This document shows positions 2,201 through 41,697 of a DNA stretch of 64,000 nucleotides, piece by piece (position 1 is the stretch's first letter; each line of letters starts with the position of its first letter). The notes beneath the pieces were generated by a model. It was not told the origin of the DNA, searched no databases, and saw only the letters and a program-made list of their open reading frames with translations. Both the position numbers and the translations under genes were made by a program. This DNA is from Carettochelys insculpta (lineage: Eukaryota; Chordata; Testudines; Carettochelyidae), in assembly GCF_033958435.1 (NCBI RefSeq), contig NC_134137.1, positions 112,416,501-112,480,500 on the forward strand. The letters run 5' to 3'.

Positions 2201-4911
2201 GCACAGAAGTGTTATAGTGCATCGGAAAGCCAAAGATTCTCCCCATCAGCAACTCTGTTTTCTGAGAAACATTCCTATCTTCTCTTTCTTCTTGTTTTTT
2301 GGGGTCCCTGTACTAGTTTCAATAAAGTAAAAAATCTTTTTTTCTGAGATTTTTCTATCCTCTTTCTTCTAACTTTGAGGGTCCCTGTATTCTTTCCAGG
2401 GATTGTCATATTTTCAGGGATTGGGAGGGGAATGAGGACATGGGAAGATGATGTCAAAGACTAGCAAGCAGATCCAGAGTTCTATAGGGATGAGTGACCT
2501 GTGGGATAGATTCCCACAATGCACTGCTGCAGTGGTCGATGTTCGCCCATTTGAGTGTGGCAGCAACGAGTCAACTTTGAGGAGCATGTGGAAAGTGAAG
2601 ATGGCCAAATTCAAACTTATAAATTCCAGAATAACAAAATCAATATTAATGAATTTGAATGAATCTCATAGTGTAGACATGAGCTAAGTTATGTCTACTC
2701 CAGCCATGCTATTTAGATAGCTGGAGCTGAATAACTTAATTTGACTTTGTCCTGTAGAGTAGACCTGTCTTAAGTTATATGCTTAGAAAGAAATCACTAA
2801 CTAAATATATTTGTGATAAATAATACAGATGAAGAAAAATGTATGTAGTGCAAGATAAAAGGGTGTAAATAAAAACAAATTCAAACTAAGAACATTTTTC
2901 AGGAGGAATTTAGGGAAAAAAATCATTTTTGGAGATAAGATCCATGAGCATGTTTTATATACTCAAGTGGTAGCTACACATTTAGATCCAACCTAGAAAG
3001 GTACTAGAATAAAAACTGTGTTCTTCATGGAAATAGAAAGGACTGGTTGATCCTACAACAGCAGTCAAATGAAAACTTTATCTAATGGATCTTTTTTATC
3101 TCTAATTTTTGTTGTTCTATGACAAGTCTGTTAAATAGTTGAATCATTTTTCATTATGAAATATCCCTTATGTTACATTTTTTGTCAAATATTGTCTTAA
3201 GAACATCAGCTTCTCAGTAAGTTAAATGCAATGACCTTTCGTAGAGCTTTACATGTCCTTTGAATCACCAACATTGTATTAAAAATCTGAGCTCATATGA
3301 TATGTCTGAGTCCCTCATCTGTCACTGCACATCATCTCCTGACATTTGTGGTTGCACTGGTATTTCTGTTGTATAGAAGATGTGGTTTTCTTCTTCTTGC
3401 ATCTTATTCTGAAATTCATCCAGCTGGCTTTTCATAGGTGGCCCTCCCACTGAACATGGAAACTGTACCATCTGGCTAAAAAATGCAAATACTTTTGATC
3501 TCTGGTGAAGCTACTGAGGCCACAAAGCCAATAAAACACAAAGAAACAACTGAAATGAGAATAAAATTGTAGACTTTAAGCATTCATCATTAATTATGCA
3601 GTGATAATAATAGTGATAATTGAGAAAGAGGAATATGAAGCCCTCATTGCAAAGGAGTTAGGGGACAAAATGAACATTCAGATTCAGTCATCTAGAATAA
3701 TATGTGTATAATGGAAAAATATTACATGTTCCACTTATACCCTTTCCAATAATGTATTATGAATTAAATACTTAAAACTTTTCTTTTCAATTATTAGCCA
3801 CAGATATTTCAAATAAAGCTAATAGAATAGTCATAATTGTGAAATACTGAAAACAATTTAATAAGCCAGATTTATGTATGTAAGAAGATTGTGTTTTTAA
3901 AATATTTTCTGAAGTTTAACAGAGAAATTACAATCACAAGTCCTATGATTTGAAATTAAACAATTGAACTTTTACAGAAAAACAGTCATTGTGTTACTCC
4001 TCTTAAAACTCATAGTTAGCGTCTCTCTCTGTCTTTATATAGCACATGTAATATGTTTTATCTTTGTATGTGTGTATATAAATATGAAGTCTACATTTCA
4101 CTCATGTAAGCTATTCATAAAGAACTATTTAATTGACATATATTATCTTTTTCTGTATATTTTTATAGATATATTGGTTTTTCAAAATTAATTGATGGAT
4201 GTTTCATGCTAATAAATTTCACATTCTCAATGGGTCACAAATTATGTTCATTGCATATATTGTGATTTATGAGATATTAGTGTGGCATTATCTCTGCGTG
4301 ATTGATTACTGTAAAAATATAATTCTATCCCCTGAGTGGAGGAGTTAATTGCTTTTTTCAAGTGACCTTTTTTGAAAAAAAAAAGAAAAAAATGGTAAGT
4401 AACACCACGATTAAGCAACTGGGCCTTGGATTCTTTCATGCCTGTGGAGAATCTGCAATGAACACATACAAATCAAATCGCCTGATGTGCCATTTTGTTC
4501 AACTGTGTGTGATGTGTTCCATTTGGAGCCACACTACTGGGGGCAGAAAAGTCCTGCTCCTACTGGCACAATGCCCTCTCTTACATTCGTGGCCCATACC
4601 ACTTAGGAAAATTAGAAGCTACATAATTTCAGAAGATTAGCTTGACAAAAATTAGTCTTAAAATGGTATGTATAAGTGCCTGGGGCTGAGGGTGTCTTGG
4701 ACTTCTTACGTAATATGATTTCACAACTATAATATGTTCTGCATGATGCAATGAAAAAGGAAAGCCCTATGTAAATATACAGCTCTGAGCCAGTATGTGA
4801 ACAAAATAAGGAAGAACACATACAACTTCACATATAAAAATATCTGCATGAGGGTTAATGTCTTTGCTTTTGACTTCAGAAGAACTGGGCCCAAGTCTTG
4901 AAATGTCAGAC
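2201..4911. other. A+T-rich DNA without recognisable genes
   Basis: No coding, RNA or strong repeat signal was seen except a short MITE-like fragment at about 2665-2775 with GTGTAGACATGAGC and TTATGTCTACTCC ends. Reading frames here are short and A+T driven. Confidence 0.6.
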
Positions 4912-13862: not shown

Positions 13863-14549
13863 ACATGTAGAGGGGAACTTCAGGTTACACTTATTAAAAG
13901 ATACGGTTTTGGAAACATAAATTGATGTAAAGGGAGTACTGGAGTTGAAAAGAAAAGGGCAGCTGGGTACTACCTTTGGAAATGAAGCTGAGTAGGCAAC
14001 AGGGAACTAATGATTTCAGAACATGTTTTATCTATACACAGGGAAACACTTAAATCTGGGTATTGCCCAAAAGAGCTAACACTTCACCAAATCATTTGAG
14101 TAGCCATACTCATGAGCCATGTCTACTCTAGCCAGCTATTTCGAAATAGTCATGCCAACTTTGAAATAGCGCCCACCGTGTCTACACGTGCCGAGTGCTA
14201 TTTCGAAGTTGAAATCGACGCAAGGTGGCGATATGTCAAAGTTGTTATCCTCATCAGGAGATGGGAATAGCGCCCTACTTCGATGTTGAATGTCGAAGTA
14301 GGGTGTGTGTAGACGATCTGCGTCCCACAACATCGAAATAGCAGGGTCCTCCATGGCGGCCATCAGCTGAGGGGTTGAGAGACGCTCTCTCCAGCCCCTG
14401 AGCTCTATGGTCGCCGCATGCAGCGGCCCCTTAAAGCTCCCTGCCCCCTTATTTCCTGTGCAGGAAGCTGAGAGCACGTGCAGGCAGCAGCACACGCACG
14501 TGCCCAGCCTGCACGTCCTCCCAGAGCCCCAACCCACTACCCTGCACCA

Positions 14550-15104
14550 ATGGCAGCCAGCCAGCCCCCCAGGCACCCACAGGGCACCCCCTCCAAGGGG
14601 ACCCAGGGTTCCCAGCATGCCAGCCAGCAGGGGAAGAGGCAGCGGGGTCCCTCCTGGACGGAGGCCGAGATCCGGGACCTGCTGGGACTCTGAGGCGATG
14701 AGGAGGTGCTCCAGGTAATGGGGAGCAAGAGGCAGAATGCGGATGCATTCACTCGGCTGGCTGAGGGCCTGGCTGCCCAGGGTCACCCTGCCTGCACTCC
14801 TGACCATGTCAGGAGTAAGGTAAAGGAGCTGCGGCAGGGTTACACCCGGGCCCGGGACACGGCCAGCTGGTCTGGGGCAGCCCCCGCTGCTTGCCCCTTT
14901 TACAGGGAGATCAGGGAAATCTTGGGCCCCTGGTACGCCTCCTCCCCCCAGGCCACCCTTGACACCTCAGCCAACAAGCCCCAGCAGGCCCCAGAGATGG
15001 AGTCCACCCCAGAGGCCAGGCCTGCACCCCAGGGCCCCCCCAGAAGCCCACCCCTGGGACACCAGAGGAGGAGGAGGAGGCCTACAGTGACGGGGGGCTG
15101 CTGA
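14550..15104 (+). pseudogene. Myb/SANT-like DNA-binding protein of the transposon, N-terminal part, broken
   Basis: This is the accessory DNA-binding protein that PIF/Harbinger elements encode beside the transposase. In other family members it helps import the transposase into the nucleus and bring it to the ends. Translation from ATG 14550 (context CCAATGG) gives a Pro/Gln-rich start, then a trihelix-type domain: PSWTEAEIRDLL near 14655-14690, a middle with FTRLAEGLAAQGH, then VRSKVKELRQGYTRAR and CPFYREIREILG to about 14925. A TGA at 14691-14693 sits where the family normally has tryptophan (L-stop-GDEEV), a nonsense mutation. A frame change before about 15060 then moves the acidic EEEEEAYSDG tract into another frame. 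A likely donor CGTCAG|GTGTGT is at 15180. Coding potential is otherwise well kept. Confidence 0.8.
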
Positions 15105-15538
15105 TAGCCCTCACCTCCCAGAGCTCCAGCAGGGTGTCCACCTGATGGGTGTCCCCCGACCATGGGAGCGGACCGTCAGGTGTGTACCCCCCGGTGCACA
15201 CCCTGGGGTTAAGGGGCGGGGACAAGGGACATGACCAGGACCCTCCACACACCCAGATGACTATGGCCCCGAGGACAGCAGTAGCATGTCCCTCAGAAGA
15301 GTTCATCAGCCCCTGCCCCCCCCAGCAGGACAGCACCATGCCCCATCCCTGGGGATGGGGGGAGCAGAACCTAGGGTCCCCCATGGTGTGGGGGCGGGGT
15401 TGGACACCCATCAGCAGCAGCAGCATCTCCGGGGGATGGGGATGGGGAACCAGCAGCAGAGGGGTGGAGGGACAAGGGCCACGGGTCAGGGCCCACATTA
15501 ATGGCTGTCTCCACTCTTCTTCCCCCCTCTGTTCCGCA

Positions 15539-15952
15539 GCTGCACCATCGGAGGGCCCGGAGAGCACCGGTGTGGCATCTGTGGTCCCGGACAGCCCACC
15601 AGGGCCATCGCAGCAGGCCAGCCCCTTGGCAGAGCACGGACCAGCCCCAGGACAAGCCCGACAGCAGCAGAGCCATCTGCGGGCGTCCACGGACCCCCAG
15701 CTGCTTGCCACCATCTGGCATCAGCTGGAGGTGTCTGAGCGGCTCCTGCAGGTGGAGGAGCGGCAGCTCCATCTCCAGAAGCGAGTGCTGGCCTGGCGCC
15801 AGGAGGCTTGGGGGGCCTTCATGCGTACGTTCCAGGACATTGCGCGGCACTTGGCCCCCCCTGCTGCTCTGCCCGCCGCTCCGCCTGCCTCTCCACCCAC
15901 CGTTCCGTCTGCCATCCCTCCACCATCAGCCATCCTGGGGCCTGCCGCCTAG
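15539..15952 (+). pseudogene. Myb/SANT-like protein, C-terminal exon
   Basis: A pyrimidine-rich tract ending TGTTCCGCAG at 15529-15538 is a good splice acceptor. The frame that follows runs to TAG 15950-15952. It encodes a Ser/Pro-rich linker and then an amphipathic helix (LEVSERLLQVEERQLHLQKR, continuing to about ARHLAP) that in this family forms the C-terminal coiled coil, probably for partner binding. Assigned as the second exon of the gene starting at 14550. It lies in a different frame from that exon, consistent with an intron and with frame damage upstream. Confidence 0.7.
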
Positions 15953-16253
15953 GGGGACCATGGGCCTCTGGACACTGCCCAGCCCTATCTGCTAGTTCTC
16001 CCGGCCCCCACCAAACCTCGGTGGGGCCTCCGGCCCAGACATGGGTCATGCCCCACAACACCAGGCGCTGGACAGTAGGGGGTGCAAGGCTGAGGACATT
16101 GCCCCCCAAGGCCCCCCTCCTTTGTACATATTCCACCCATCTTTGTAAATAGCTTTTGTTCTACCCCCATTTAGTAGCTGCCCCCCCATGTACATAGTTC
16201 CCCCCTTCTTTTAATAATAAGGTTGCACTGTTTTGTTTCAAACAAAATTTCCA

Positions 16254-16259
16254 TTTATT
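16254..16259 (-). promoter_or_regulatory. Polyadenylation signal for the transposase gene
   Basis: AATAAA on the minus strand, 124 bp past the transposase stop. The plus-strand gene ends in AATAATAAGG-type sequence at about 16212-16222, so the two convergent transcripts would overlap by tens of bases at their 3' ends. Confidence 0.55.
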
Positions 16260-16382
16260 TCAAAGAAAAGTGTGGGTGTATGTGCTCTTGGGTGTTCTGT
16301 GGTGTGGGCGTGGGGGCAGGGAGTGTTGTGGAGGATCGGGGGGTGCAGTGGGTGGCTCACCCACAGCTGGCCCTGCCAGCGT

Positions 16383-17133
16383 TCACCCCGCAGCCTGGTC
16401 AAAATGGGCCCTCAGGGCCTCCCGGACCCGGATCCCCTCAGGGTCGACCTCGCGACTGGGGGCAGCAGGTGGCTGGACATCGGCCCTGCCAGCCTCCACA
16501 GACCAGCCCTGGAACAAGGCTTCTCCCTTGCTCTCGACCAGGTTGTGGAATGTGCTGCATTCACCCACAACCTGGGGGATGTTGGTGAGGCCTGCATCCA
16601 GGTGGGTGAGGAGACACCTCCACTGCCCTTTGAGGCTGCCGAAAGTGCGCTCGACCACCTGGCGCGCATAGTTCAAGAGCATGTTGAACCGCTTCTGGCA
16701 GGCTGTGAGATGGCCCGTGTAGGGGTGTATGAGCCAGGGCCGGAGCGGGTATGCTGCACCTGCAATTAGGCAGAGGGGCATGGTAGTGTCCCCCACAGGG
16801 ATCTCCCGCTGGGGGAAGTAGGTCCCCACCTCCAGCCAGCGGCACAGGCCCGAATTTCTGAACACCTGGGTGTCGTGGGTGCCGCCAGGCCAGCCAACAT
16901 AAATGTCCAAGAAGCGTCCCCGGCTGTCCACCAAGGCCTGGAAGACCACGGAACGGTATCCCTTCCTATTGAGGAAGTGTCCTCCGCTGTGCTCCTGGGC
17001 ATGGATGGGGATATGGGTCCCATCTAGGGCCCCAAAGCAATTTGGGAAGCCCAGGCTGTCAAACCCCGTGATGGCGGCATCCAGGTCCCCAAGCCACACA
17101 AGCCTGTGGAGGAGCAGGGCATTGATTGCGTGG
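16383..17133 (-). CDS. HARBI1-like DDE transposase, second exon
   Basis: This is the catalytic half of a PIF/Harbinger transposase (DDE_Tnp_4 fold), which cuts and joins the element ends. Reading the minus strand: CFGALDGTHIPI carries the first catalytic Asp, GGTHDTQVFRNSG the second, and ARQVVERTFGSLKGQWRCL the Glu, in the order and context expected. The frame continues to TGA at 16383-16385 without a stop. The frame itself is open from 17219, but 17134-17219 looks intronic (TCTTGTGTTCTTCCCCTGCA then CATCAG). Spliced at that acceptor, the exon is out of phase with exon 1 (see intron), so this copy may not make a functional enzyme. Confidence 0.85.
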
Positions 17134-17283
17134 CTGATGTGCAGGGGAAGAACACAAGAGAGCACCGGTGAGGCGTGTGCAGGGTGTGTCTGGCCCTCCC
17201 CACAGGGCTCCCCCCACACAGTGTTCCCCCCCTCCCCACAGGGTTCCCCCCTCCCCCCAGGGTTCCCCCCCGGGTCCTTTTAC
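17134..17283 (-). other. Probable transposase intron with a phase conflict
   Basis: On the minus strand, GGAG|GTAAAAGG (donor, 17284/17283) and a pyrimidine tract ending CTGCACATCAG (acceptor, 17134/17133) bracket 150 bp of G-rich low-complexity DNA. Exon 1 ends at a codon boundary, but the acceptor enters exon 2 at the third codon position, so joining these sites runs into a stop shortly afterwards. Either another splice site is used or this copy has a 1-nt indel. Confidence 0.55.
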
Positions 17284-17769
17284 CTCCATGAGGACAGCCC
17301 CGATGGTGGTCTTGCCAATACCAAACTGCTGCCCCACGGATCGGTAGCTGTCTGGAGTGGCCAGCTTCCAGACAGCAATGCCAACCCGTTTCTCTACTGT
17401 CAGGGCACGTCGCATGGGGGTGTCCTGGTGCCATAAGGCAGGGGTGAGCCACTGGCACAGCTCCAGGAATGTCTGCCGGCTCATACAAAAGTTCCGGAGC
17501 CAGCGCTCATTGTCCCACTCACCGAGCACCAGCTGCTCCCACCAGTCTGTGCTTGTGGGGTATTTCCACAGCCGGCAGCATGTGGGGCGGGAGTGGGCTG
17601 GGAGGGCAGCAAGGTCTGAGGCTGCTTCCTCATCCCCTGGGGGCAGCTTATCTTCCTCAAATAAAAGATGTTCAGCTGCCTCCTGCATGGCACTGAGCAG
17701 GGTAGCCACTGGTCCTCCAGGGGCGGGTGTGTGGGCCTCTGGCTGCTCCTGCTGCTGCTGGAGGTCCAT
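17284..17769 (-). CDS. HARBI1-like transposase, first exon (DNA-binding region)
   Basis: It starts at ATG 17767-17769 with a Gln-rich MDLQQQQEQPEA. An acidic segment and then WEQLVLGEWDNERWLRNFCM and FLELCQWLTPAL follow, then a helix-turn-helix-like part (VGIAVWKLATPDSYRSVGQQ; FGIGKTTIGAVLMEV), the arrangement seen in HARBI1-type transposases. There are 162 codons with no stop. The start region is what the family-A MITEs retain. Confidence 0.82.
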
Positions 17770-18123
17770 GCTGCTTCCACGGGGTGCGTGCTTGTGGCTT
17801 TGCAGACCGCGTGCTGTGCAGGCTGAGTGTGTCTGGGAGGGGCCCTTTAAGGGAGCGGCTAGCTGTTGCCCCGGAAGTGCTAGTCCGCCCTGTGACCCTG
17901 TCTGCAGCTGTTCTTGGCACCCTTATTTCGATTTGGGCCTCTTTTGTGTGTAGACGCTCCCCTGCAGCGCCTATTTCGATGTAGTGCTGTCCAACATCAA
18001 CATTGAACGTCGGCGGCACCAGCCCTGGAGGATGTGTAGACGCTATTCATCGAAATAGCTGATTTTGATTTCGCTACATCGAAATAAGCTATTTCGAAGT
18101 AGCATCCCAGTGTATACGTAGCT

Positions 18124-31567: not shown

Positions 31568-32074
31568 GGCTATGTCTGCACTAGCACACTACGTCGAAGT
31601 AGCCTATTTCGAAGTAAGAACATCGAAATAGGCTATTTTGACATGTATCGTCTACATGTCCTCCACGGCTGGTACCGTCGGTGTTCAAAGTTGAAGTAGC
31701 GATGGGGAACATCGAAAGGAGCCACCCCAGAAGGAAATGAGGAGCGTCCACACACATAAGCACTCTCCATCGAAAGAAGGGGCCAGCAAAGACTGCGGAC
31801 AGGGTCACAGGCTGGACTAGCCCTTCTGGGGCAACAGCAAGATGCTCCCTAAGATGGCTCCTCCCAGACACACTTGGCCTGCACAGCACGAGGTCCACAG
31901 AGCCGACAACCAGTTGCAGACCCCGTGCACAAAGCATGGACCCCCAGCTGCAACAGCAGCAGCAGCCAGAAGCCCTGTGCTAAGGTCTGCTGCATGCAGC
32001 GATCATAGAGCCCTGCAGGGGCTGGACAGAGCACCTCTCAACCCCTCAGCTGTTGGCCGCCATGGGGGACCCTG
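31568..32074 (-). mobile_element. Family-A Harbinger MITE, left part (host of the provirus)
   Basis: It starts GGCTATGTCTGCACTAGC after the TTA duplication and runs collinear, in reverse orientation, with 50157-50838. It keeps ATG plus the first transposase codons (MDPQLQQQQQPEAL) at about 31937-31980, and stops at the provirus at 32074. The remainder resumes at 41033. It is clearly more diverged than the 1, 50157 and 61230 copies, so it was old before the provirus arrived. Confidence 0.82.
32070..32074. repeat. Provirus target-site duplication, left copy (CCCTG)
   Basis: CCCTG immediately before the 5' LTR is repeated immediately after the 3' LTR at 41033-41037. Confidence 0.92.
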
Positions 32075-32519
32075 TGTAGCCAGACAGAGTCTCCCCCTTA
32101 CAAGCCAGCTTGCTCGTTGCCCCCCCCACTGAGGAGCACACAGGGCACGGAAATGGCTGCTGACAGCACAGTCTTTGATGCCCTCATTGAGGCCCAGATA
32201 TGCTGGCTTATCGTGACCCTGAGAAGCACAAAGTACAGCTAGAAGGCTAACAGGCCAGACTGTCAACATGAGAGAGGGGGGTGAACCCTCAAGAAATCAC
32301 CCCAGCTGGCATTGATCAATATGATGCACACACACAATCACTCAGAAGGGGACGTGCCCCGCCCGCACAAAAGAATGTCCTGTACTCCTAAATTGTTTAT
32401 CTCTTGTCTTACAAGTGCAAACTAAGTAGAAATGCCCTTGTAACAAACTGGAGTCACAAAGACAAACCAGTATGATCTGGCACCATAGATAAGAAAGAGA
32501 ATACATAACCCAAAAGGGG

Positions 32520-32526
32520 TATAAAA
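32520..32526 (+). promoter_or_regulatory. LTR TATA box
   Basis: TATAAAA in the context GGGGTATAAAAGATGGG. It predicts a transcription start about 25-30 bp downstream, near 32550. The same site is at 40338-40344 in the 3' LTR. Confidence 0.8.
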
Positions 32527-32700
32527 GATGGGTCCAGCAGAACTCTAACTTTGAGTGCATTCGACCAACTTCCTGCTGGTCGGGTCAGGTGATTGCCTCC
32601 CGAGGTCCACAGCTGGGGACGCCCAACCTCGTATTCGTCTTTCCGTCGGAATTGAGTGACCGATCCGGCTTGGCTACGCTGGTATCGAGGAGACGCAGAG

Positions 32701-32709
32701 AGGGTAAGA
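32701..32709 (+). promoter_or_regulatory. Candidate splice donor in R
   Basis: AGG|GTAAGA matches the vertebrate donor consensus well. If used it would remove the rest of the leader. A second candidate lies in U5. Confidence 0.5.
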
Positions 32710-32911
32710 TACACCCATGCTAGGTCTCTGACTTTTTTTGTGCACAGCTAAAGAATTAGAGCTCTGTAACTAGTATCAAGATATCATTGTGTTAGATGGT
32801 AACAGATATCTTTGTATTGGATTGTAATGTAACTTGTTAACACCTGTACTTTGCTAGCATATAAGAAGTAAACAATAACCTTTTGTAACCACACGCTTAT
32901 AACTGTAGCTT

Positions 32912-32917
32912 AATAAA
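32912..32917 (+). terminator. LTR polyadenylation signal
   Basis: AATAAA in CTTAATAAACTTG. The copy used for the viral RNA is 40730-40735 in the 3' LTR, followed by T/G-rich sequence within about 40 bp. Confidence 0.75.
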
Positions 32918-33027
32918 CTTGTAACTAGTTAAGATCCAAGCCTAACTATTTTGTTAACCCTTTTGTCACTGCAACACAGCCGGCACAACAAAAGAACTTT
33001 AACCATTTGGTTACAACAGCCTGGCCA

Positions 33028-33036
33028 TAGGTAAGA
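33028..33036 (+). promoter_or_regulatory. Candidate major splice donor in U5
   Basis: CATAG|GTAAGAG is a strong donor match. Because only 52 nt separate the LTR from gag, the donor for env mRNA probably lies inside the LTR. This is the better placed of the two candidates. Confidence 0.55.
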
Positions 33037-33218
33037 GTGCTAGGAGCTGCCTGCTCTAACAGTAAAAAACTGGGTTGCTTAGGACCCAGGGGAGTCCATC
33101 AGCCTGTCTTGGCTGCTTGCAGCGACGAGCTCTCTGCTCTTGTAGTTTTAAACTTGGATGATAACAAGGGCATAGTTGGTACCTCACCGCACATTACCTG
33201 GCCACCGGCTAACAGAAT

Positions 33219-33236
33219 TGGCGTAGTCGAGCAGGG
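33219..33236 (+). promoter_or_regulatory. Primer-binding site, tRNA-Ser-like
   Basis: TGGCGTAGTCG begins 4 nt after the LTR and is complementary to the CCA end of the tRNA-Ser(NGA) group as I know it. The next bases read AGCAGGG rather than GCAGGAT, so there is one extra A and the tail of the pairing is imperfect. tRNA-Ser priming is unusual and is associated with the ERV-S group of class III. Confidence 0.65.
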
Positions 33237-33266
33237 TTGTGACATAGGCTGTACCACAGTGACAAA

Positions 33267-34874
33267 ATGAAACCAGTCATGATAAACAACTCAGATTTCC
33301 TTGACATAGAAAAGAATCTAGCTCAGGAAGGATGGGGTAACCCACAGTGGAGTAAAGATGTGATAGAAAAGGATTGGGGAAACCCGAAGGACATTTGGCA
33401 ACACTATTGTAACTGGAGAACTGCCTGTAAAATGAAAAGAGGGAAAGGCAAAGGTGCTTACATCTGGCTTTTAACTAACATATGGCAGGCAGCCAGTAAG
33501 AGCTACCAGAACTTAGAAGCTGAGCTCCTTAAAGTACAAGCAGAAAGGGACACGTTGCACAAAGAATGCCAGAATTTAGACACTCGAGTGCGTACACTAA
33601 ATACAGATATAGAGCACCTTCAACGAAGGCTGCTGCCCCTGATTGAAAAGGAAGGTGTGGAGCGAAGGAAGAAGCTAGAAGCCAAGCCACGCAGCATTAA
33701 TCAAGCTAAGGTAGAGACCGCTCTGTGGTTAGACCCTGAGGAATGGGACGGGGATATTTGGGACTCCTCTCCTGATGAGTCCTCCCTCTCCTCCGACGAG
33801 GAGGTACCCCCAGTCCGGATGCGGCCACTTATCACCTACCAAAAGTCAGAAGAGGAGGAGGAAGAAGAATCTAGTGATGCAGGTGATGTAAATGGTAGGT
33901 CCTCGGGCAAGAAAAGGGACAAGAAATCAGGGAAAGGTAGAAAGAAAACCCCAGTGTCACGAAAAATCACCTCCCGAATGTACAAGCCCTCTGAATTAAA
34001 AGAAATCCAGCAAGATTTTTCTAAAAAGCCAGGAGAGGGGATAATAGAATGGCTAGTACGCCTATGGAATTCCGGAGCGGGGCATATACGCCTTGTCGCC
34101 CGTGAATGTGACCAGCTTAATTTGGGGGCAGAAATATCCCTCAGCTGCCCTGAACAGGAAAGCCCCAGAACACTATGGACCCTAGTCACTAGGTGGGCTG
34201 CAGAAATACATCCAGCAGACCGAGATGAACCCACAGTTATACCATGGGCTAATGCAGAGGAAGCTAAGGAAGCCCTGCAAACTATAGCCACCATTAGTTT
34301 GCTCAGCCACTTGCACCAGAGTGAAAATAGGGACGAAAGAAGCCCATGGGAACAGTTGGCCCGAGTAAATGATCTGAGACCTTTGTTAAAGGGAGCTGCC
34401 AGTGCCCATAAGGCAATGGCATTGTCCCTCCGAATGGAGGTACAAAGTAATACTGACCTCACCTTTCAAGATTTGCTTCGTCGCCTAATACAATATTTCA
34501 GAGAGTTTGGGGAAAGTAAAACCCCACTAAACAAAGCTAAAGTGCGACAGTTAAAAGAGGAGCAAAAGGGTAGACAAGAAAGCTCCCAATCCAAGAAACG
34601 GGGGGGCTTCAAGCCCAAACGTGAAACAACTCCAGAGGAGAAAGAGCTCCGAGCAAAGCTATGGAAACAGTGCCTGGCCTTAGGCTATCCCAAAGATGTA
34701 ATTCATGGGCTGCCGACTGAAAAGCTAAAACTCCTAGCTGCCTTTGGAAAGGCCAGAGAGGAGGAAACAGCAGTAACTCCTGATGCTCCTCCTCTCCCAG
34801 ACACCCTTTACACACCACTACGGCAGCAACTACGCGAGCTGCCGTCCCCAGTCGATCTCGATCAGGGAAACTAG
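33267..34874 (+). CDS. gag: Endogenous retrovirus Gag polyprotein
   Basis: Structural polyprotein that builds the virus core; 535 residues, uninterrupted. ATG 33267 is chosen because the frame's acidic and basic modules all follow it, with A at -3. Residues 80-128 form a coiled coil (leucine/valine heptads), 155-205 are acidic, 212-236 basic, and 240-430 are capsid-like (KKPGEGIIEWLVRLWNSGA opens it). The C terminus has a basic patch (SKKRGGFKPKR) where other retroviruses have zinc knuckles; no CCHC box is present. Residue 2 is Lys, so there is no N-myristoylation glycine. I see no PPxY or PTAP late motif. The zinc-free, coiled-coil-bearing plan suggests an ERV-L or spuma-like lineage. Confidence 0.9.
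   Translation: MKPVMINNSDFLDIEKNLAQEGWGNPQWSKDVIEKDWGNPKDIWQHYCNWRTACKMKRGKGKGAYIWLLTNIWQAASKSYQNLEAELLKVQAERDTLHKECQNLDTRVRTLNTDIEHLQRRLLPLIEKEGVERRKKLEAKPRSINQAKVETALWLDPEEWDGDIWDSSPDESSLSSDEEVPPVRMRPLITYQKSEEEEEEESSDAGDVNGRSSGKKRDKKSGKGRKKTPVSRKITSRMYKPSELKEIQQDFSKKPGEGIIEWLVRLWNSGAGHIRLVARECDQLNLGAEISLSCPEQESPRTLWTLVTRWAAEIHPADRDEPTVIPWANAEEAKEALQTIATISLLSHLHQSENRDERSPWEQLARVNDLRPLLKGAASAHKAMALSLRMEVQSNTDLTFQDLLRRLIQYFREFGESKTPLNKAKVRQLKEEQKGRQESSQSKKRGGFKPKRETTPEEKELRAKLWKQCLALGYPKDVIHGLPTEKLKLLAAFGKAREEETAVTPDAPPLPDTLYTPLRQQLRELPSPVDLDQGN
34865..34871 (+). promoter_or_regulatory. -1 ribosomal frameshift site GGGAAAC
   Basis: The heptamer G GGA AAC is in the correct phase with gag and abuts the gag stop TAG (34872-34874). 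The pro-pol frame is the -1 frame and is open from before this point. The same heptamer is used at gag-pro junctions of some betaretroviruses. Downstream, GGGG (34881-34884) can pair with CCCC (34892-34895), and TCTCCCCT (34889-34896) with AGGGGAGA (34915-34922). These two pairings exclude each other and could form the stimulating structure. Confidence 0.85.
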
Positions 34875-37800
34875 GTGGCGGGGGTCAGTCTCCCCTCCAA
34901 GTAAATCAGTTAAAAGGGGAGAATGAGTCAGCAAATGACCCCCGGATTCAAGTAATAGTAAATGACAGGCATGTAACATCCTTTCTAGTGGACACTGGAG
35001 CCCAAGTATCCATGATTAAGCGAGAAAGCTTTCCCGGTCCACCACCTACTGGCCGAAAACAAGTACTGGTCACAGGAGTTAATGGCACAATTATTACATA
35101 CCCTCTGGTCAAAGTTAAATTAGACATCCCTTTTCAACCTTACAGACAGCCCCGAAAGCACGAGATAATCCTCGGTAATGCTAACATACTGGGCATGGAC
35201 ATTCTGAAAGGAAAAGAGGGAATAATAAATGGGGAGAAATGGGCTTTTGGAGCAGGCTTTAAGCCCCATACCACTGTTCTGGAAGAAGAAGATGCCTCCA
35301 GATATACAATCAACCTGCTCAGTAGTGCTCCTGCTCTCCCACCCTCGACCTTAACCAACGTGAAACAGTATAATGTCCCAGCAGAAGCTATAGGCCCGAT
35401 TTCTGAACTTGTAAAGGACCTGGAGAAACGGGGTATTCTAATCCGTACCAATTCTCCATATAACTCACCTGTCTGGCCTGTGAAAAAGCCCAATGGAAAA
35501 TGGAGGCTCACCATAGATTACCGAAAGCTTAATAGCAACACAGGGCCCCTTACAGCAGCAGTCCCCAACATTATTGACATTGTAAACACCATACAGACTT
35601 GGAATAAGGAGTGGTTAGCTGTATTGGATATAAAGGATATGTTTTTCATGGTTCCCTTGCAACCTCAGGATCAGGAAAAGTTCGCTTTTACCTGGAAAGG
35701 GGTCCAATATACATTCACTCGCATGCCCCAAGGCTATACGCACTCACCCACCATCTGCCATGCCGCACTAGCAAAGGTTTTAGACGGCCTAAACCTGCCT
35801 TCTAACACCCAGATCCTACAGTACATTGATGACATCTTAATAGGAGGGGATACCTCTGAGGAGGTACAGGAAGCCGTAACTGAGGTAAAGGCAGCCCTGG
35901 AAGGTCTTGGCTTAGATCTACCACCTGATAAATGCCAAGGTCCCTCTCATGAGGTAAAATTCCTGGGTACCATCTGGATGGGAGGACGAAGGTCGATACC
36001 TGATGAAACTGTAAATGAATTAAGTCAGGCATCGTCCCCAGAAGATAAAGCCCAACTGAGACAAATGTTAGGGGTTTTGGGATTCTGGAGAAAGCATGTA
36101 CCGGGTTTTGCTATCATAGCCCGACCCCTTTACAACCTGCTTAAAAAGAGTGCCACATGGGAATGGACCCCTGTGCATGAGGAGGCCCTCAGACAGCTAA
36201 TAGGTGAGATTCATACCTATCAAGCTCTGGGTCCAATCCACCCCAATGCCCCCTTCCACTTGTACCTCACCGTGGGGAATACTGGGTCCTCCTATGCCCT
36301 ATGGCAGGAGAGTGAAACTGTACCTCGCCGTCCTATTCAATTTGGCTCAAAGTCATGGCAAGGGTCACAGACCAATTATACCCCCTACGAAAAGGTACTC
36401 CTGTCAGCTTACACAGCTCTGAGGGAGACAGAGGAGTTAACCCAAGGCCAATCTGTAACACTCCACACTCCTCTCCCGATCATTAAGCCTATATTGGAGG
36501 GAAAAGAGTTACCACCTGGGGTAGCCCAAAAGATGACTGTACAAAGGTGGGCACTCTACATACATCACAGGGTCAGTGGGGCAGACACTGCGCAGAATCC
36601 CACTATGGTTAAGGAGTCCCTGTGGAAAGTGGGAATGCCTACCGAATACCATCTACCCCCACAACCATCTCCTATTAAGGATGCTCCTCCGTTTAACCCA
36701 TCTCAATCTGAGGGAGTATGGTTTACAGATGGCAGTGCAAAGCTGGTAAAAGGGAAATGGAAAGGAAAAGCTGCAGCGGTCCCAGCGGATGCATCAGCTG
36801 CACCCCTAACTGCAGACATAGAGGGATCAGCCCAACTAGCTGAACTAGCTGCTATTGTACTAGCCTGTAAGGCAGGAGCCAATGTTGTATACACCGATTC
36901 CTACGCAATATGGGCAGGGGCTACTCAGTGGATAACTAACTGGAAAAATAACAACTGGGAAATTGGAGGAAAGCCTGTATGGGGATTAAAATACTGGAAA
37001 TGGATATACCATCATGCAACCCAAAATGCCTTAAGCATAGGCCATGTGTCAGCCCATCAAAAGAGTAATACTCCAGCTGCACAGCTAAATAACCTGGCAG
37101 ATGCAGCAGCCCAGATCTCTGCTGCCCAAGTAGATTGGGAACGTTTGTACCTATGGCTGCATGATACTTTAGGGCACACTGGAAGTGAGGAGTTAACGCG
37201 GCAAGCACATATCAGGGGGTGGCCCATCACCCACCGACAGGCTAGAGACCTGGTGCAAGCCTGTACTATCTGTGCAGAAACCCGAAAACATGTAGCAGAA
37301 GGGCAGCGATTTGCCAGACTAAAAGATGGAAAAACACTATGGGCAACCTGGCAGGTTGATTACATTGGCCCACTCCCTACTACCAGACAACGGTGGAAAT
37401 ATATTTTAACTGGAGTGGAGGTTGTCTCAGGAATAGGGTTTGCATACCCCACCAAGGGGGCAACAGGACTTTCCACCATCACGGGACTGAATCGTGTAAT
37501 AGCAATAGTCCCTACACCCCAAGAGATCCAATCTGACAATGGCTCACACTTTAAAAACAAAGCAGTACAAGAGTGGGCTGTTAAGCATGGAATTCAGTGG
37601 ACTTACCACCTCCCTTATCGACCCCAGTCCAACGGCATAGTCGAGCGCTGGAATGGGCTGTTAAAAAACCACCTGAAGCCCACGGATGGCACTTGGGGAA
37701 ACAGGCTGGATGAGGTTGTACAGAGACTGAACAACCGACAGACCCCTACGGGCAGTCCAATCAGCAGAGGATTTTTCCCTACTGGGAGAAATTTCTCAGC

Positions 37801-37987
37801 TTCAGCTGCACCGCTCAAGGACTCCAAATATAATCCTGGAGATACTGTTGTAATTAGACACCCTAGCCTGGGAACACAGACTCATGTACTGCACTCATAC
37901 AAAGGGAAGGGAGTTTGGATTACTGCTGGCCCTGACCAGGCACCACTAACTATCACTGAGGCTTGGATTGTATCCAAGACCGGCTGA
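34871..37987 (+). CDS. pol: Endogenous retrovirus Pro-Pol polyprotein
   Basis: Enzymes for maturation, reverse transcription and integration, made as a frameshift extension of Gag. Start given as the first codon after the slip; there is no Met near it. Protease: DTGA active site at about 34991 and ILGMDIL near 35191. Reverse transcriptase: LDIKDMF (first Asp 35627), MPQG, YIDD at 35822-35833. RNase H: TDGS (Asp 36728), then Glu in AQLAELAA, Asp in YTDSYA and NNLADAA. Integrase: HDTLGH and CTIC zinc site (37160-37273), then catalytic Asp 37358, Asp 37535 and Glu 37643, with exactly 35 residues between the last two. All key residues are present and there is no stop. No dUTPase follows integrase. 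The RT style suggests class III (ERV-L/S). Confidence 0.93.
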   Translation, partial: LGGGGQSPLQVNQLKGENESANDPRIQVIVNDRHVTSFLVDTGAQVSMIKRESFPGPPPTGRKQVLVTGVNGTIITYPLVKVKLDIPFQPYRQPRKHEIILGNANILGMDILKGKEGIINGEKWAFGAGFKPHTTVLEEEDASRYTINLLSSAPALPPSTLTNVKQYNVPAEAIGPISELVKDLEKRGILIRTNSPYNSPVWPVKKPNGKWRLTIDYRKLNSNTGPLTAAVPNIIDIVNTIQTWNKEWLAVLDIKDMFFMVPLQPQDQEKFAFTWKGVQYTFTRMPQGYTHSPTICHAALAKVLDGLNLPSNTQILQYIDDILIGGDTSEEVQEAVTEVKAALEGLGLDLPPDKCQGPSHEVKFLGTIWMGGRRSIPDETVNELSQASSPEDKAQLRQMLGVLGFWRKHVPGFAIIARPLYNLLKKSATWEWTPVHEEALRQLIGEIHTYQALGPIHPNAPFHLYLTVGNTGSSYALWQESETVPRRPIQFGSKSWQGSQTNYTPYEKVLLSAYTALRETEELTQGQSVTLHTPLPIIKPILEGKELPPGVAQKMTVQRWALYIHHRVSGADTAQNPTMVKESLWKVGMPTEYHLPPQPSPIKDAPPFNPSQSEGVWFTDGSAKLVKGKWKGKAAAVPADASAAPLTADIEGSAQLAELAAIVLACKAGANVVYTDSYAIWAGATQWITNWKNNNWEIGGKPVWGLKYWKWIYHHATQNALSIGHVSAHQKSNTPAAQLNNLADAAAQISAAQVDWERLYLWLHDTLGHTGSEELTRQAHIRGWPITHRQARDLVQACTICAETRKHVAEGQRFARLKDGKTLWATWQVDYIGPLPTTRQRWKYILTGVEVVSGIGFAYPTKGATGLSTITGLNRVIAIVPTPQEIQSDNGSHFKNKAVQEWAVKHGIQWTYHLPYRPQSNGIVERWNGLLKNHLKPTDGTWGNRLDEVVQRLNNRQTPTGSPISRGFFPTGRNFSASAAPLKDSKYNPGDTVVIRHPSLGTQTHVLHSYKGKGVWITAGPDQAPLTITEAWIVSKTG

Positions 37988-38005
37988 CCTTGTGATTTGT
38001 TCCAG
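37988..38005 (+). promoter_or_regulatory. Probable env splice acceptor
   Basis: CTTGTGATTTGTTCCAG, a pyrimidine-rich tract ending in AG at 38004-38005, just after the pol stop and 10 nt before the env ATG. It would join to a donor in the LTR. Confidence 0.65.
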
Positions 38006-38015
38006 AAACAGCCCC

Positions 38016-39809
38016 ATGGCTCCAAACAACTCCTCAGTGGAATGGACGCCTCCCGAGATTGGCCCAGACGCCAAGCTGCACTATGAACTCTGTATATATT
38101 TACTGCTTGCTGTTATAGCTTCTTTGATTATTGTATTCAGTTTTAAAATGAGCTATCTAGGAAAGCCCCGAATGACAAGGGATGCGCTCCTTCAACTCAT
38201 CATCATCCTCCTAGCTCCAGCTGCCATCGCCATACCCGACCACCCACTCCGGGGTGCCGTTCAAGCTATCGCCTCCATCGCCAAAGCAACCGACTGCTGG
38301 ATGTGCACACTACTCAACTCCCCCACTGGACCTGGAATTGAGTTTGTGCCCCTTGGCCTAAATGACTGGTGGAATAAGAGCGACATCTTCCGGTGGGGAC
38401 CGGAATGGTCCGGAGGCAGTCCTCACACTAACTCTGGGGGGGAGCCAAAACAATGGCAGCGTACTATGTGGGGGCAACCACTGGAATATGTAATGGGGTC
38501 ATCTAAAGCAATGTATCCCATTTGTTTTGAAAGCAGGGGAAATGCTGAGGCTCAGATGGGAAGCCTGGGTGACCACCAGTGCACCCACCTGGTCTCATTC
38601 AACAGGAAGTTAGGGATCTGGGATGTTCACTCACAACAAGAAAAGGGACTGCAGTTAAACTGTTGGGGAAATGTCATTAATGCCTCCCTAGGTCACAAAG
38701 TTTTGTTTGGTGTTAAGGATGCTGCAATTGTCCCTCTAAAGTTTAATGAATACCCTGAAAGCCAAGCTTGGTATAACAAATCCCTTTTTATCCTCCCTCA
38801 CACAGGATACATATATGACCCCACCCTTGTAAATTCCAACACTCTGTTATCAAATCAGTGTGCTAAAGATAACCTTTTCAAGCCAGACCAAATTTTGCAA
38901 GACCTACTGGTTACTCTATACTGTTCTATTACCAGTGATCACTATTGTGTCCCATACCATGCCCCCAGGCTCGATCCAAACGAAGGATGGTATAAGGGAC
39001 CCTTTTCTCCCATCCTCAGTAAAGAGCCTGGATTGTTTTTCATCTGTGGGGAAAAAGCTTATAAATACTTACCAACAAACTGGACTGGACGATGCTCACT
39101 TGGGCACATAGTACCCGGGGGATTAACTGTATACCCTCACATCACCGCTCCCGGCATAACCAACCTGGGAAGCTTCTTGCATCGATCCAAAAGAAAGTTC
39201 ACTCGTAACCCCCTCATTGAGCGACCCACAGGCTTCCACAGATTTACCCGTGCACTTTTTCCCTGGTTGGGAGTTGCTGAACTTGAGCGAGCCTTAGTTA
39301 ACATCTCAGGCCAACTAGAAATAGCTCTTAATCATACTGCAGATGCCTTAAATCTTTTAAATAACCAACTCCAATCCGTAGCTCGCTTTGCTCTACAAAA
39401 TAGAATTGCTCTAGATGCCATTCTAGCCCAACAAGGAGGTGTCTGTGCTGTAATAAATCAGTCCTGCTGCTTTTATGTTAATCACTCAGGACAAATCGAG
39501 CAAGATGTCTCTGCTATCAAAGATGCAGTTCAAGTCCTGCATGCTACAGCTGAGACTGGAAAAACCTCATGGCTGGAGTGGTTAGTCCAACAGTTAGGAT
39601 TTTCTCTCTCTCCATTCCTGCATTCTATTGTAACCACTATTTTGATTGTTCTTATCATAGTAGTTGTGTTTTGTATAACACTGTGCATCGTCAGGAGACT
39701 AATTAATATGGCTATCTCCTCTATGCAAATCCGATACATGGAGCTGACACGTGATCCTAGCCAATTCCGCGATAGCCCACCTACTGATCGGATCATTGGG
39801 CACTTTTAG
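38016..39809 (+). CDS. env: Endogenous retrovirus envelope glycoprotein, gamma-type
   Basis: Surface/transmembrane fusion glycoprotein, 597 residues, uninterrupted. ATG 38016 (CCCCATGG) is chosen because it follows the splice acceptor; the frame is open to 37968 but without Met. Leader: two hydrophobic stretches, 25-43 and 57-72, the second ending in APAAIA, a plausible signal cleavage. SU: CWMC (94-97) is the isomerising CXXC motif. Furin site RSKR at 390-393. TM: helical region, LQNRIALDAIL, then C477-X6-C484-C485, the gamma-type disulfide motif, membrane span about 537-560 and a tail of about 37 residues. About nine N-glycosylation sites. The sequence after the furin site is basic (KFTRNPL) before GFHRFTRALFPWLG, not a classical fusion peptide. 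Gamma-type Env on an ERV-L-like backbone suggests recombination. Confidence 0.92.
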   Translation: MAPNNSSVEWTPPEIGPDAKLHYELCIYLLLAVIASLIIVFSFKMSYLGKPRMTRDALLQLIIILLAPAAIAIPDHPLRGAVQAIASIAKATDCWMCTLLNSPTGPGIEFVPLGLNDWWNKSDIFRWGPEWSGGSPHTNSGGEPKQWQRTMWGQPLEYVMGSSKAMYPICFESRGNAEAQMGSLGDHQCTHLVSFNRKLGIWDVHSQQEKGLQLNCWGNVINASLGHKVLFGVKDAAIVPLKFNEYPESQAWYNKSLFILPHTGYIYDPTLVNSNTLLSNQCAKDNLFKPDQILQDLLVTLYCSITSDHYCVPYHAPRLDPNEGWYKGPFSPILSKEPGLFFICGEKAYKYLPTNWTGRCSLGHIVPGGLTVYPHITAPGITNLGSFLHRSKRKFTRNPLIERPTGFHRFTRALFPWLGVAELERALVNISGQLEIALNHTADALNLLNNQLQSVARFALQNRIALDAILAQQGGVCAVINQSCCFYVNHSGQIEQDVSAIKDAVQVLHATAETGKTSWLEWLVQQLGFSLSPFLHSIVTTILIVLIIVVVFCITLCIVRRLINMAISSMQIRYMELTRDPSQFRDSPPTDRIIGHF

Positions 39810-39881
39810 ACCTCCCCCAAGGAGGGCAAAAGGTGCTGGCATCACCGCCACCTTGCGTTCTGGGATGTAGTGTGGTGCATC

Positions 39882-39892
39882 AGGGGGTGGAA
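39882..39892 (+). promoter_or_regulatory. Polypurine tract
   Basis: AGGGGGTGGAA, purine except for one T, directly abutting the 3' LTR. It primes plus-strand DNA synthesis in retroviruses. Only 72 nt separate the env stop from it, leaving no room for an accessory gene. Confidence 0.8.
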
Positions 39893-41032
39893 TGTAGCCA
39901 GACAGAGTCTCCCCCTTACAAGCCAGCTTGCTCGTTGCCCCCCCCACTGAGGAGCACACAGGGCACGGAAATGGCTGCTGACAGCACAGTCTTTGATGCC
40001 CTCATTGAGGCCCAGATATGCTGGCTTATCGTGACCCTGAGAAGCACAAAGTACAGCTAGAAGGCTAACAGGCCAGACTGTCAACATGAGAGAGGGGGGT
40101 GAACCCTCAAGAAATCACCCCAGCTGGCATTGATCAATATGATGCACACACACAATCACTCAGAAGGGGACGTGCCCCGCCCGCACAAAAGAATGTCCTG
40201 TACTCCTAAATTGTTTATCTCTTGTCTTACAAGTGCAAACTAAGTAGAAATGCCCTTGTAACAAACTGGAGTCACAAAGACAAACCAGTATGATCTGGCA
40301 CCATAGATAAGAAAGAGAATACATAACCCAAAAGGGGTATAAAAGATGGGTCCAGCAGAACTCTAACTTTGAGTGCATTCGACCAACTTCCTGCTGGTCG
40401 GGTCAGGTGATTGCCTCCCGAGGTCCACAGCTGGGGACGCCCAACCTCGTATTCGTCTTTCCGTCGGAATTGAGTGACCGATCCGGCTTGGCTACGCTGG
40501 TATCGAGGAGACGCAGAGAGGGTAAGATACACCCATGCTAGGTCTCTGACTTTTTTTGTGCACAGCTAAAGAATTAGAGCTCTGTAACTAGTATCAAGAT
40601 ATCATTGTGTTAGATGGTAACAGATATCTTTGTATTGGATTGTAATGTAACTTGTTAACACCTGTACTTTGCTAGCATATAAGAAGTAAACAATAACCTT
40701 TTGTAACCACACGCTTATAACTGTAGCTTAATAAACTTGTAACTAGTTAAGATCCAAGCCTAACTATTTTGTTAACCCTTTTGTCACTGCAACACAGCCG
40801 GCACAACAAAAGAACTTTAACCATTTGGTTACAACAGCCTGGCCATAGGTAAGAGTGCTAGGAGCTGCCTGCTCTAACAGTAAAAAACTGGGTTGCTTAG
40901 GACCCAGGGGAGTCCATCAGCCTGTCTTGGCTGCTTGCAGCGACGAGCTCTCTGCTCTTGTAGTTTTAAACTTGGATGATAACAAGGGCATAGTTGGTAC
41001 CTCACCGCACATTACCTGGCCACCGGCTAACA
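39893..41032 (+). repeat. 3' LTR (1140 bp)
   Basis: Same length and, as far as I compared, the same sequence as 32075-33214. It ends CTAACA and is followed by the target duplication CCCTG. It contains the TATA box at 40338-40344 and AATAAA at 40730-40735, so it could also drive transcription into the flank. Confidence 0.95.
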
Positions 41033-41697
41033 CCCTGCTATTTTGATGTAGTGGGACACAGATAGTCTACACATACCCTACTTTGACATTGAACATCAAA
41101 GTAGGGCGCTATTCCCATCTTCGGATAGGAATAGCAATTTCGACATCTTGCCGCCTAATGGCTATGTCTACACTAGCCCCAAACTTCGAAATGGCCACGC
41201 AAATGGCCATTTCAAAGTTTACTAATGAAGCACTGAAATGCATATTCAGCGCTTCATTAGCATGTGGGTGGCCGCGGCACTTCGAAATTGACGCGCCTCG
41301 CCGCTGCACGGCTCATCCCAACGGGGCTTCTTTTCGAAAGGACCCCGTCTACTTCGAAGTCCCCTTATGAATAATTATGAATAAGGGGACTTCGAAGTAG
41401 GCGGGGTCCTTTCGAAAAGGAGCCCTGTCGGGACGAGCCGTGCGGCGGCGAGGCACGTGAATTTCGAAGTGCCGTGGCCGCCCGCATGCTAATGAAGCGC
41501 TGAATATGCATTTCAGCGCTTCATTAGTAAACTTCGAAATGGCCATTTGCGTGGCCATTTCGAAGTTTGGGGCTAGTGTAGACACAGCCAATGTCGATTT
41601 CAACATCGAAATAGCGCATGGCATGTGTGGACGCGATGAGTGCTATTTCGGCATTGCGCCAGATACTTCAAAGTAGCTGGCTGGTGTAGACACACCC
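41033..41697 (-). mobile_element. Family-A Harbinger MITE, right part, split again by a smaller MITE
   Basis: After the CCCTG duplication the sequence continues the element left at 32074 (CTATTTTGATG..., CCTACTTTGACATTGAAC...), is interrupted at 41160-41589, and ends GTGTAGACACACCC at 41697. TTA at 41698-41700 matches 31565-31567. This confirms one 1.2-kb element disrupted by two later insertions. Confidence 0.85.
41160..41589. mobile_element. Fold-back MITE, family B, nested; 3-bp TSD AAT
   Basis: GGCTATGTCTACACTAGCCC and its mirror GGGCTAGTGTAGACACAGCC are flanked by AAT at 41157-41159 and 41590-41592. The arms around CCTACTTCGAAGTCCCC and mirrored blocks are still very similar, so this copy is younger than the one at 25430-25871. 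It interrupts the family-A element between CGCCT and GTCGA, where other family-A copies read CGCCTAACGTCGA. Confidence 0.85.

What the first reader, a model, noticed from the sequence alone, without database searches (positions are those of the whole stretch)
32075..41032. Young, apparently intact endogenous retrovirus
Seen: two 1140-bp LTRs at a constant offset with no difference in the parts I compared, a perfect 5-bp target duplication (CCCTG), and gag, pro-pol and env all open with every catalytic residue I looked for in place. Known: LTRs are identical at insertion and diverge with time. Inferred: the insertion is recent, could be polymorphic in the species, and the family may still be mobile or infectious in its host lineage.
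Basis: partly seen in the sequence, partly recalled or inferred. Interest (0 to 1): 0.92.

Follow-up and report, generated by a model that had tools for sequence, protein, structure and literature searches.

The report
Recently inserted, multi-copy turtle endogenous retrovirus

Summary
The LTRs (32075-33214, 39893-41032) match at 1140 of 1140 positions with a CCCTG duplication; [quoted passage not shown] In the same assembly, 8 two-LTR proviruses (window included), each with its own 5-bp duplication, show 0-9 LTR differences; 6 of 13 copies seen have all three genes open. An exact 20-base LTR start occurs 442 times; of the 100 places listed, 69 lack a close partner and 11 of 16 close pairs are a ~4.6-kb deleted form. 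Related families show dN far below dS in gag, RT and env, which suggests spread by infection. The kind is known: class III-like (or reptile 'ERV4') gag-pol with a gamma-type Env, closest in design to frog XtERV-S and human HERV-S. Caveats: at slow reptile rates identical LTRs allow about 2-3.4 million years; the window's primer-binding site is a mosaic of two serine-tRNA forms; class was not settled by a tree; polymorphism, expression and infectivity were untested. A new member of a known kind.

The parts
32070..32074 (.). left copy of the 5-bp target-site duplication (CCCTG)
32075..33214 (+). 5' LTR, 1140 bp; TATA-like box at 32520, polyadenylation signal at 32912, splice-donor-like sites at 32703 and 33029
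   Evidence: promoter and splice assignments are consensus matches only
33219..33238 (+). primer-binding site: first 11 bases match the 3' end of a host tRNA-Ser(AGA) gene, the rest matches a second tRNA-Ser tail
33267..34874 (+). gag, 535 aa; long predicted N-terminal helix (residues 62-138), no CCHC zinc knuckle, no Pfam retroviral Gag family at E 0.1
34865..34871 (+). slippery heptamer GGGAAAC directly before the gag stop, likely -1 ribosomal frameshift site; same heptamer plus stop in 3 of 3 sister-family gag-pol junctions read
   Evidence: no frameshift was measured
34784..37987 (+). pro-pol reading frame (1067 aa stop to stop): protease about 34934-35221, RT 35480-35971, RNase H 36716-37114, integrase core 37346-37624
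38000..38005 (+). splice-acceptor-like sequence ending 10 bases before the env ATG
   Evidence: read by eye only
38016..39809 (+). env, 597 aa: extra N-terminal hydrophobic stretch (about 20-49) before the signal-peptide-like one (about 53-76), CXXC at 94, RSKR at 390, CX6CC at 477, membrane span about 527-569; gamma-type TM
39882..39892 (+). polypurine tract
39893..41032 (+). 3' LTR, identical to the 5' LTR
41033..41037 (.). right copy of the target-site duplication (CCCTG)

Best explanation
A complete provirus of a 'class III-like' (neither class I nor class II by its traits) endogenous retrovirus family that inserted recently. Shown: identical LTRs, TSD, three open genes, many close relatives at other sites. 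Inferred: transcription from the TATA-like box in U3 to the polyadenylation signal in R; Gag by normal translation and Gag-Pro-Pol by -1 frameshifting at the heptamer before the gag stop; Env from a spliced RNA; reverse transcription primed by a serine tRNA; integration with a 5-bp stagger. The gamma-type Env is about as constrained as Gag between families, so the lineage most likely spread by infection (exogenous or germline reinfection) and reached the germline recently and repeatedly, while a deleted ~4.6-kb form with nearly the same LTRs spread by using its proteins.
For: LTR identity and TSD. Eight of 8 two-LTR proviruses compared have matching 5-bp TSDs at different sites and 0, 0, 0, 1, 2, 3, 4, 9 LTR mismatches; in the LTR tree 7 of 8 pairs are exclusive sisters, the eighth shares its clade with one solo LTR. 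Full-length env at 98% or more: 9 rows, 8 without stops (71 of 1273 candidates scored). Full-length pol at 99% or more: 10 rows, 8 without stops (43 of 10042 scored). gag open at 535 aa in 7 of 11 other copies fetched. Window against related families: gag aa identity 0.63, dS 2.6-4.4, dN 0.27-0.28 (3 pieces); env 0.60-0.67, dS 2.0-2.6, dN 0.23-0.29 (6 pieces); RT 0.79, dS saturated, dN 0.12 (2 pieces). One sister family also has young LTR pairs: 4 mismatches and 1 gap in 1267, 2 and 0 in 1269, 5 and 1 in 1086. The majority primer-binding site matches 19 bases of the 3' end of a host tRNA-Ser(AGA) gene.
Against: No RNA, protein or particle evidence. The window's own primer-binding site matches neither tRNA tail throughout. 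No strict MHR match in Gag and a poor Gag model (mean pLDDT 48.6). dS is near saturation, so dN/dS values are rough, and I chose mostly stop-free copies. Three close env pairs within one related family have ratios of 0.54-0.78 and one pair with 8 differences 2.1: constraint is weaker or absent there. 7 of 13 copies seen lack at least one full-length open gene. Gene conversion could also keep LTRs alike.
Confidence: 0.85

Rival explanations
1. The family now spreads only inside germ cells (retrotransposition in cis or with help), and the open env genes are merely young passengers.
For: Many LTRs without a close partner (69 of 100 listed starts) and 12 confirmed solo LTRs; a ~4.6-kb deleted form makes 11 of the 16 close LTR pairs in the part of the list shown. 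Within one related family three env pairs have dN/dS 0.54-0.78.
Against: env is about as constrained as gag between families; 8 of 9 close full-length env rows have no stop; synonymous divergence between young families is far beyond what slow host mutation could give (with the rate).
Confidence: 0.25
2. LTR identity reflects gene conversion or an assembly that copied one LTR onto the other, so the insertion is older.
For: Zero differences alone cannot exclude it; one assembly only.
Against: Three proviruses at different sites have identical LTRs and five show 1-9 differences, all with their own TSDs; 7 of 8 LTR pairs are exclusive sisters; gag also differs by only 2-5 of 1608 bases between the window and the 5 other copies with three open genes.
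Confidence: 0.07
3. The element belongs to the 'ERV4' class described from crocodilians and some turtles rather than to class III/ERV-L/ERV-S.
For: Same listed traits: 5-bp TSD, no Gag zinc finger, no GPY/F motif, no dUTPase, env present (against Table 1 of PMC4299795); same host group if the turtle label is right.
Against: RT and integrase spacings equal the ERV-L column of Table 2 in PMC8278194; that table has no ERV4 column, so this does not exclude ERV4.
Confidence: 0.38

Closest known systems
XtERV-S of Xenopus tropicalis (PMC8278194)
   Same: Intact, identical LTRs, serine-tRNA primer site, no Gag zinc finger, YIDD, HX4HX28CX2C and DX58DX35E integrase spacing, CXXC near the SU N terminus, gamma-type TM with CX6CC, hydrophobic stretch about 20 residues after the cleavage site (my count by eye here; 22 in the paper), deleted forms and solo LTRs
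   Different: XtERV-S reads gag-pol through a stop in one frame, has a dUTPase-like segment after integrase, 705-bp LTRs, a 158-bp leader and a 441-aa Env; here a -1 frame for pol, no dUTPase hit, 1140-bp LTRs, 52-bp leader, 597-aa Env with an extra N-terminal hydrophobic stretch
HERV-S / HERV18 (PMC4724089)
   Same: Class III, no dUTPase, no zinc finger, weak MHR, class I-type Env
   Different: LTR divergence of the human class III supergroup is given as 13-42%; here LTR pairs are 0-0.8% apart
ERV4 of crocodilians and turtles (PMC4299795)
   Same: 5-bp TSD, no zinc finger, no GPY/F, no dUTPase, env present, reptile hosts
   Different: Membership rests on pol phylogeny, which I could not make; the turtle ERV4 entries of Repbase named in that paper could be this very family
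Invading ERVs (ERVi) of vertebrates, turtles included (PMC10435555)
   Same: Identical LTRs and intact gag, pro, pol, env
   Different: ERVi also require insertional polymorphism, untested here; this locus may or may not be among theirs

Membership tests
Recent intact provirus (general) | identical or near-identical LTRs with TSD | tested here: met
   0 of 1140 differences, CCCTG
Recent intact provirus (general) | open gag, pro-pol and env with catalytic motifs | tested here: met
ERVi (PMC10435555) | insertional polymorphism among individuals | not testable with these tools
   one assembly, no reads
Class III (ERV-L/ERV-S) | 5-bp TSD, TGT...ACA ends | tested here: met
   8 of 8 two-LTR proviruses have a 5-bp TSD, and 1 of their 16 LTRs departs from the ACA end
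Class III (ERV-L/ERV-S) | no Gag zinc finger | tested here: met
   no CX2C in Gag
Class III (ERV-L/ERV-S) | RT/IN motif spacings of ERV-L | tested here: met
   against Table 2 of PMC8278194
Class III (ERV-L/ERV-S) | major homology region in Gag | tested here: inconclusive
   strict pattern absent; a weakly matching MHR is reported for HERVS and HERVL
Class III (ERV-L/ERV-S) | RT phylogenetic position | not tested
   no ERV-L/ERV-S/ERV4 references at hand; PDB search puts the RT piece about equally near MLV and foamy virus (108 and 107 bits; foamy identity of those chains recalled) and integrase nearest PFV
ERV-L | dUTPase after integrase | tested here: not met
   no dUTPase family in the Pfam scan of Pol at E 0.1
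ERV4 | pol phylogeny | not tested
   no references at hand
ERV4 | no GPY/F motif, no dUTPase, no zinc finger, 5-bp TSD | tested here: met
Gamma-type Env | CXXC in SU, furin site, CX6CC in TM | tested here: met
   TLV_coat E 2.7e-24; syncytin-2 E 5.2e-31

The most novel reading that the evidence does not exclude
Class III-like (or ERV4-like) retroviruses with gamma-type Env still circulate, or very recently circulated, as infectious viruses among turtles, several lineages entering the germline; the mosaic primer-binding sites record a change of serine-tRNA primer inside one young family, by early stopping of plus-strand strong-stop DNA at the tRNA acceptor stem and transfer to a primer-binding site of the other form.
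Probability: 0.3. Interest if true: 0.75.

Novelty: new member of a known kind. Interest (0 to 1): 0.48.

Why it matters
Class III retroviruses are known in mammals mostly as old, often env-less remains; a young multi-copy family with a constrained Env makes the question of a living or recently extinct infectious relative directly testable by genotyping and RNA surveys. The mixed primer-binding sites in near-identical copies may be a natural record of primer choice.

Tried and rejected
Protein homology search of Pol, Env and Gag: not available. Viral contig scan with Pol: nothing. Gag fold by single-sequence prediction: too poor, so no fold search was made. RNA fold after the heptamer: 8 of 200 shuffles fold at least as well, z -1.68, so no pseudoknot is claimed. 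GGGAAAC also occurs once elsewhere in the window's gag, and a second slippery-like heptamer lies in the overlap at 34804; only the one before the stop was checked and seen kept in the sister family. Genome-wide counts with Gag, a genome-wide count of primer-site forms, a 5'-half search for the second tRNA-Ser form and the empty-site search did not complete. Chance was rejected: 442 exact LTR starts against 0 for the reversed pattern. Copying of one LTR by the assembly is unlikely.
Full report
OBSERVATION. The two LTRs match at 1140 of 1140 positions, end TGT...ACA, and are flanked by CCCTG; identity stops at the LTR ends. gag (535 aa), pro-pol (1067 aa open) and env (597 aa from the ATG at 38016) are open. 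Pfam finds protease, RT, RNase H and integrase in Pol and TLV_coat in Env; no retroviral Gag family is found. Protease DTG, RT YIDD, integrase zinc and DDE residues, and Env CXXC, RSKR and CX6CC are present.

ANATOMY. The leader is 52 bases. Gag has a long predicted N-terminal helix and no zinc knuckle. Pol lies in the -1 frame; GGGAAAC sits directly before the gag stop, and the same heptamer plus stop is seen in 3 of 3 sister-family junctions read, although gag synonymous divergence there is 2.6 or more. The heptamer also occurs elsewhere in gag, and the downstream fold is only mildly stable (z -1.68), so frameshifting is likely, not shown. Env has an extra hydrophobic stretch before the signal-peptide-like one; an acceptor-like sequence lies just before its ATG.

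COPIES. The window lies in an unnamed 2.18-Gb assembly. The LTR search scored 40 of 2767 candidates: 28 full-length and 12 shorter main rows, 97-100% identical, plus 15 part rows. An exact 20-base LTR start occurs 442 times, reversed control 0. I fetched LTRs at predicted places for 9 env-bearing copies (18 stretches; 2 held no LTR and 1 a shorter type) and 20 further LTR stretches. Eight two-LTR proviruses could be compared, the window's included: mismatches 0, 0, 0, 1, 2, 3, 4, 9, all 8 with matching 5-bp TSDs. Of the 20 other LTR loci printed there, 12 are solo LTRs with matching 5-bp flanks (one in a G run), 3 are followed by a primer site and 5 are preceded by the polypurine tract. Env: 9 full-length rows at 98% or more, 8 without stops (71 of 1273 candidates scored). 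Pol: 10 full-length rows at 99% or more, 8 without stops (43 of 10042 scored). Gag: open at 535 aa in 7 of 11 other copies fetched. Over these 13 distinct copies were seen; 6, the window's included, have all three genes open, 7 lack at least one full-length open gene as far as seen (not every gene of every copy was fetched). Counts are lower bounds, and open does not mean functional.

AGE. Zero differences in 1140 give a 95% upper bound of 3.4 million years at the crocodilian rate used in PMC4299795 (3.9e-10), or 1.8 at 7.3e-10. I set the latter as one third of a recalled mammalian 2.2e-9; the one third is the turtle-to-human ratio in PMC4054807. The eight pairs together give 19 of 9142.

SELECTION. 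Against related-family pieces from other loci (3 gag, 6 env, 2 RT; mostly from copies without stops), gag aa identity is 0.63 with dS 2.6-4.4 and dN 0.27-0.28; env 0.60-0.67 with dS 2.0-2.6 and dN 0.23-0.29; RT 0.79 with dS saturated and dN 0.12. Results the other way: three env pairs inside one related family (dS 0.05-0.07) have ratios of 0.54-0.78, and one pair with 8 differences has 2.1, so constraint is weaker or absent among close copies, as decay after insertion would give. One sister family is itself young (LTR pairs: 4 mismatches and 1 gap in 1267, 2 and 0 in 1269, 5 and 1 in 1086). At host rates dS of 2 would need over a billion years, so these families diverged while replicating; with Env constrained, infection is the likelier route. 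This is inference, and dS near saturation is rough.

PRIMER SITE. A host tRNA-Ser(AGA) gene (L077, ARAGORN) matches 19 bases of the primer site in 6 family-1 copies and 2 sister copies; a second tRNA-Ser tail (L076, not called a gene by ARAGORN and apparently truncated) matches 19 bases in 2 copies. The window and 2 other family-1 copies carry a mosaic: the first 11 bases match the first form and the last 11 the second, sharing two bases; two sister copies carry a third, longer form, whose end shares 9 bases with another tRNA-Ser tail (L079/L080; L080 is an ARAGORN tRNA-Ser). Of the six deleted elements, 3 had printed ends reaching the primer site: one mosaic, one second form, one close to the second form. 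The tRNA pattern gave 6 matches against 8 for its reversed control, and only 2 of the 6 places are ARAGORN tRNA-Ser genes at the match; it plainly misses most tRNA-Ser genes expected in a vertebrate (recalled), so its failure to find a gene of mosaic form is weak evidence. The junction falls at the acceptor-stem boundary (my reading of the tRNA). I read this as plus-strand DNA stopping early in the tRNA and transferring to a genome-derived site of the other form. PMC7472051 (passages) reports primer-site variants and tRNA switches in young mouse ERVs and proposes escape from tRNA-fragment silencing, a rival reading.

DELETED FORM. Of the 100 LTR starts listed (all on one contig; 442 in all), 16 neighbouring same-strand pairs lie within 12 kb: 2 at 7818 bases (full length), 11 at 4426-4743, 3 others; 69 starts are unpaired, which is an upper bound for solo LTRs there. 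Six of the 4.4-4.7-kb elements read inside keep the leader and the start of gag (71-77%), the integrase part of pol (78-85%), parts of env (68-86%) and the polypurine tract (95-99%); the longest open frame on the sense strand is 164 aa. They look like passengers using the family's machinery, as do the deleted XtERV-S copies (PMC8278194).

CLASS. RT/integrase spacings equal the ERV-L column of Table 2 in PMC8278194; dUTPase, an ERV-L trait, is absent. The ERV4 trait list (PMC4299795) is met equally well, and that paper says pol phylogeny must decide. I lean to class III (HERV-S/XtERV-S-like), with ERV4 at 0.38. PDB comparison: the RT piece is near MLV and foamy virus alike, the integrase nearest PFV, Env nearest syncytin-2 and -1.

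NOVELTY. An intact class III provirus with gamma-type Env is known from XtERV-S. Identical-LTR intact ERVs in turtles are known: PMC10435555 names turtles among ERVi hosts, 4 of them threatened.

Noticed in passing
window 14136-17922: GC-rich block with long open frames; one (16383-17279, minus) has a DDE_Tnp_4 transposase domain, so probably a Harbinger-type DNA transposon (the type name is recalled).
   Followed up: partly
L082-L087: Internally deleted ~4.6-kb elements hold roughly 1 kb between the gag start and pol that does not match the window; one translated stretch there resembles an integrase fragment of another retroelement (my reading, no search).
   Followed up: partly
G000:C77: Three pol pieces of a related family lie at about 7-kb spacing on one contig, as in a tandem array.
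   Followed up: no
G000:C3:190759870-190769981: Three LTRs at a regular 4527-base spacing, suggesting a tandem of the deleted form made through LTR recombination.
   Followed up: no
[quoted passage not shown] the three such LTRs in the tree branch apart.
   Followed up: partly
window 33836-34465, minus strand: Antisense open frame of 209 aa across gag; probably chance.
   Followed up: no
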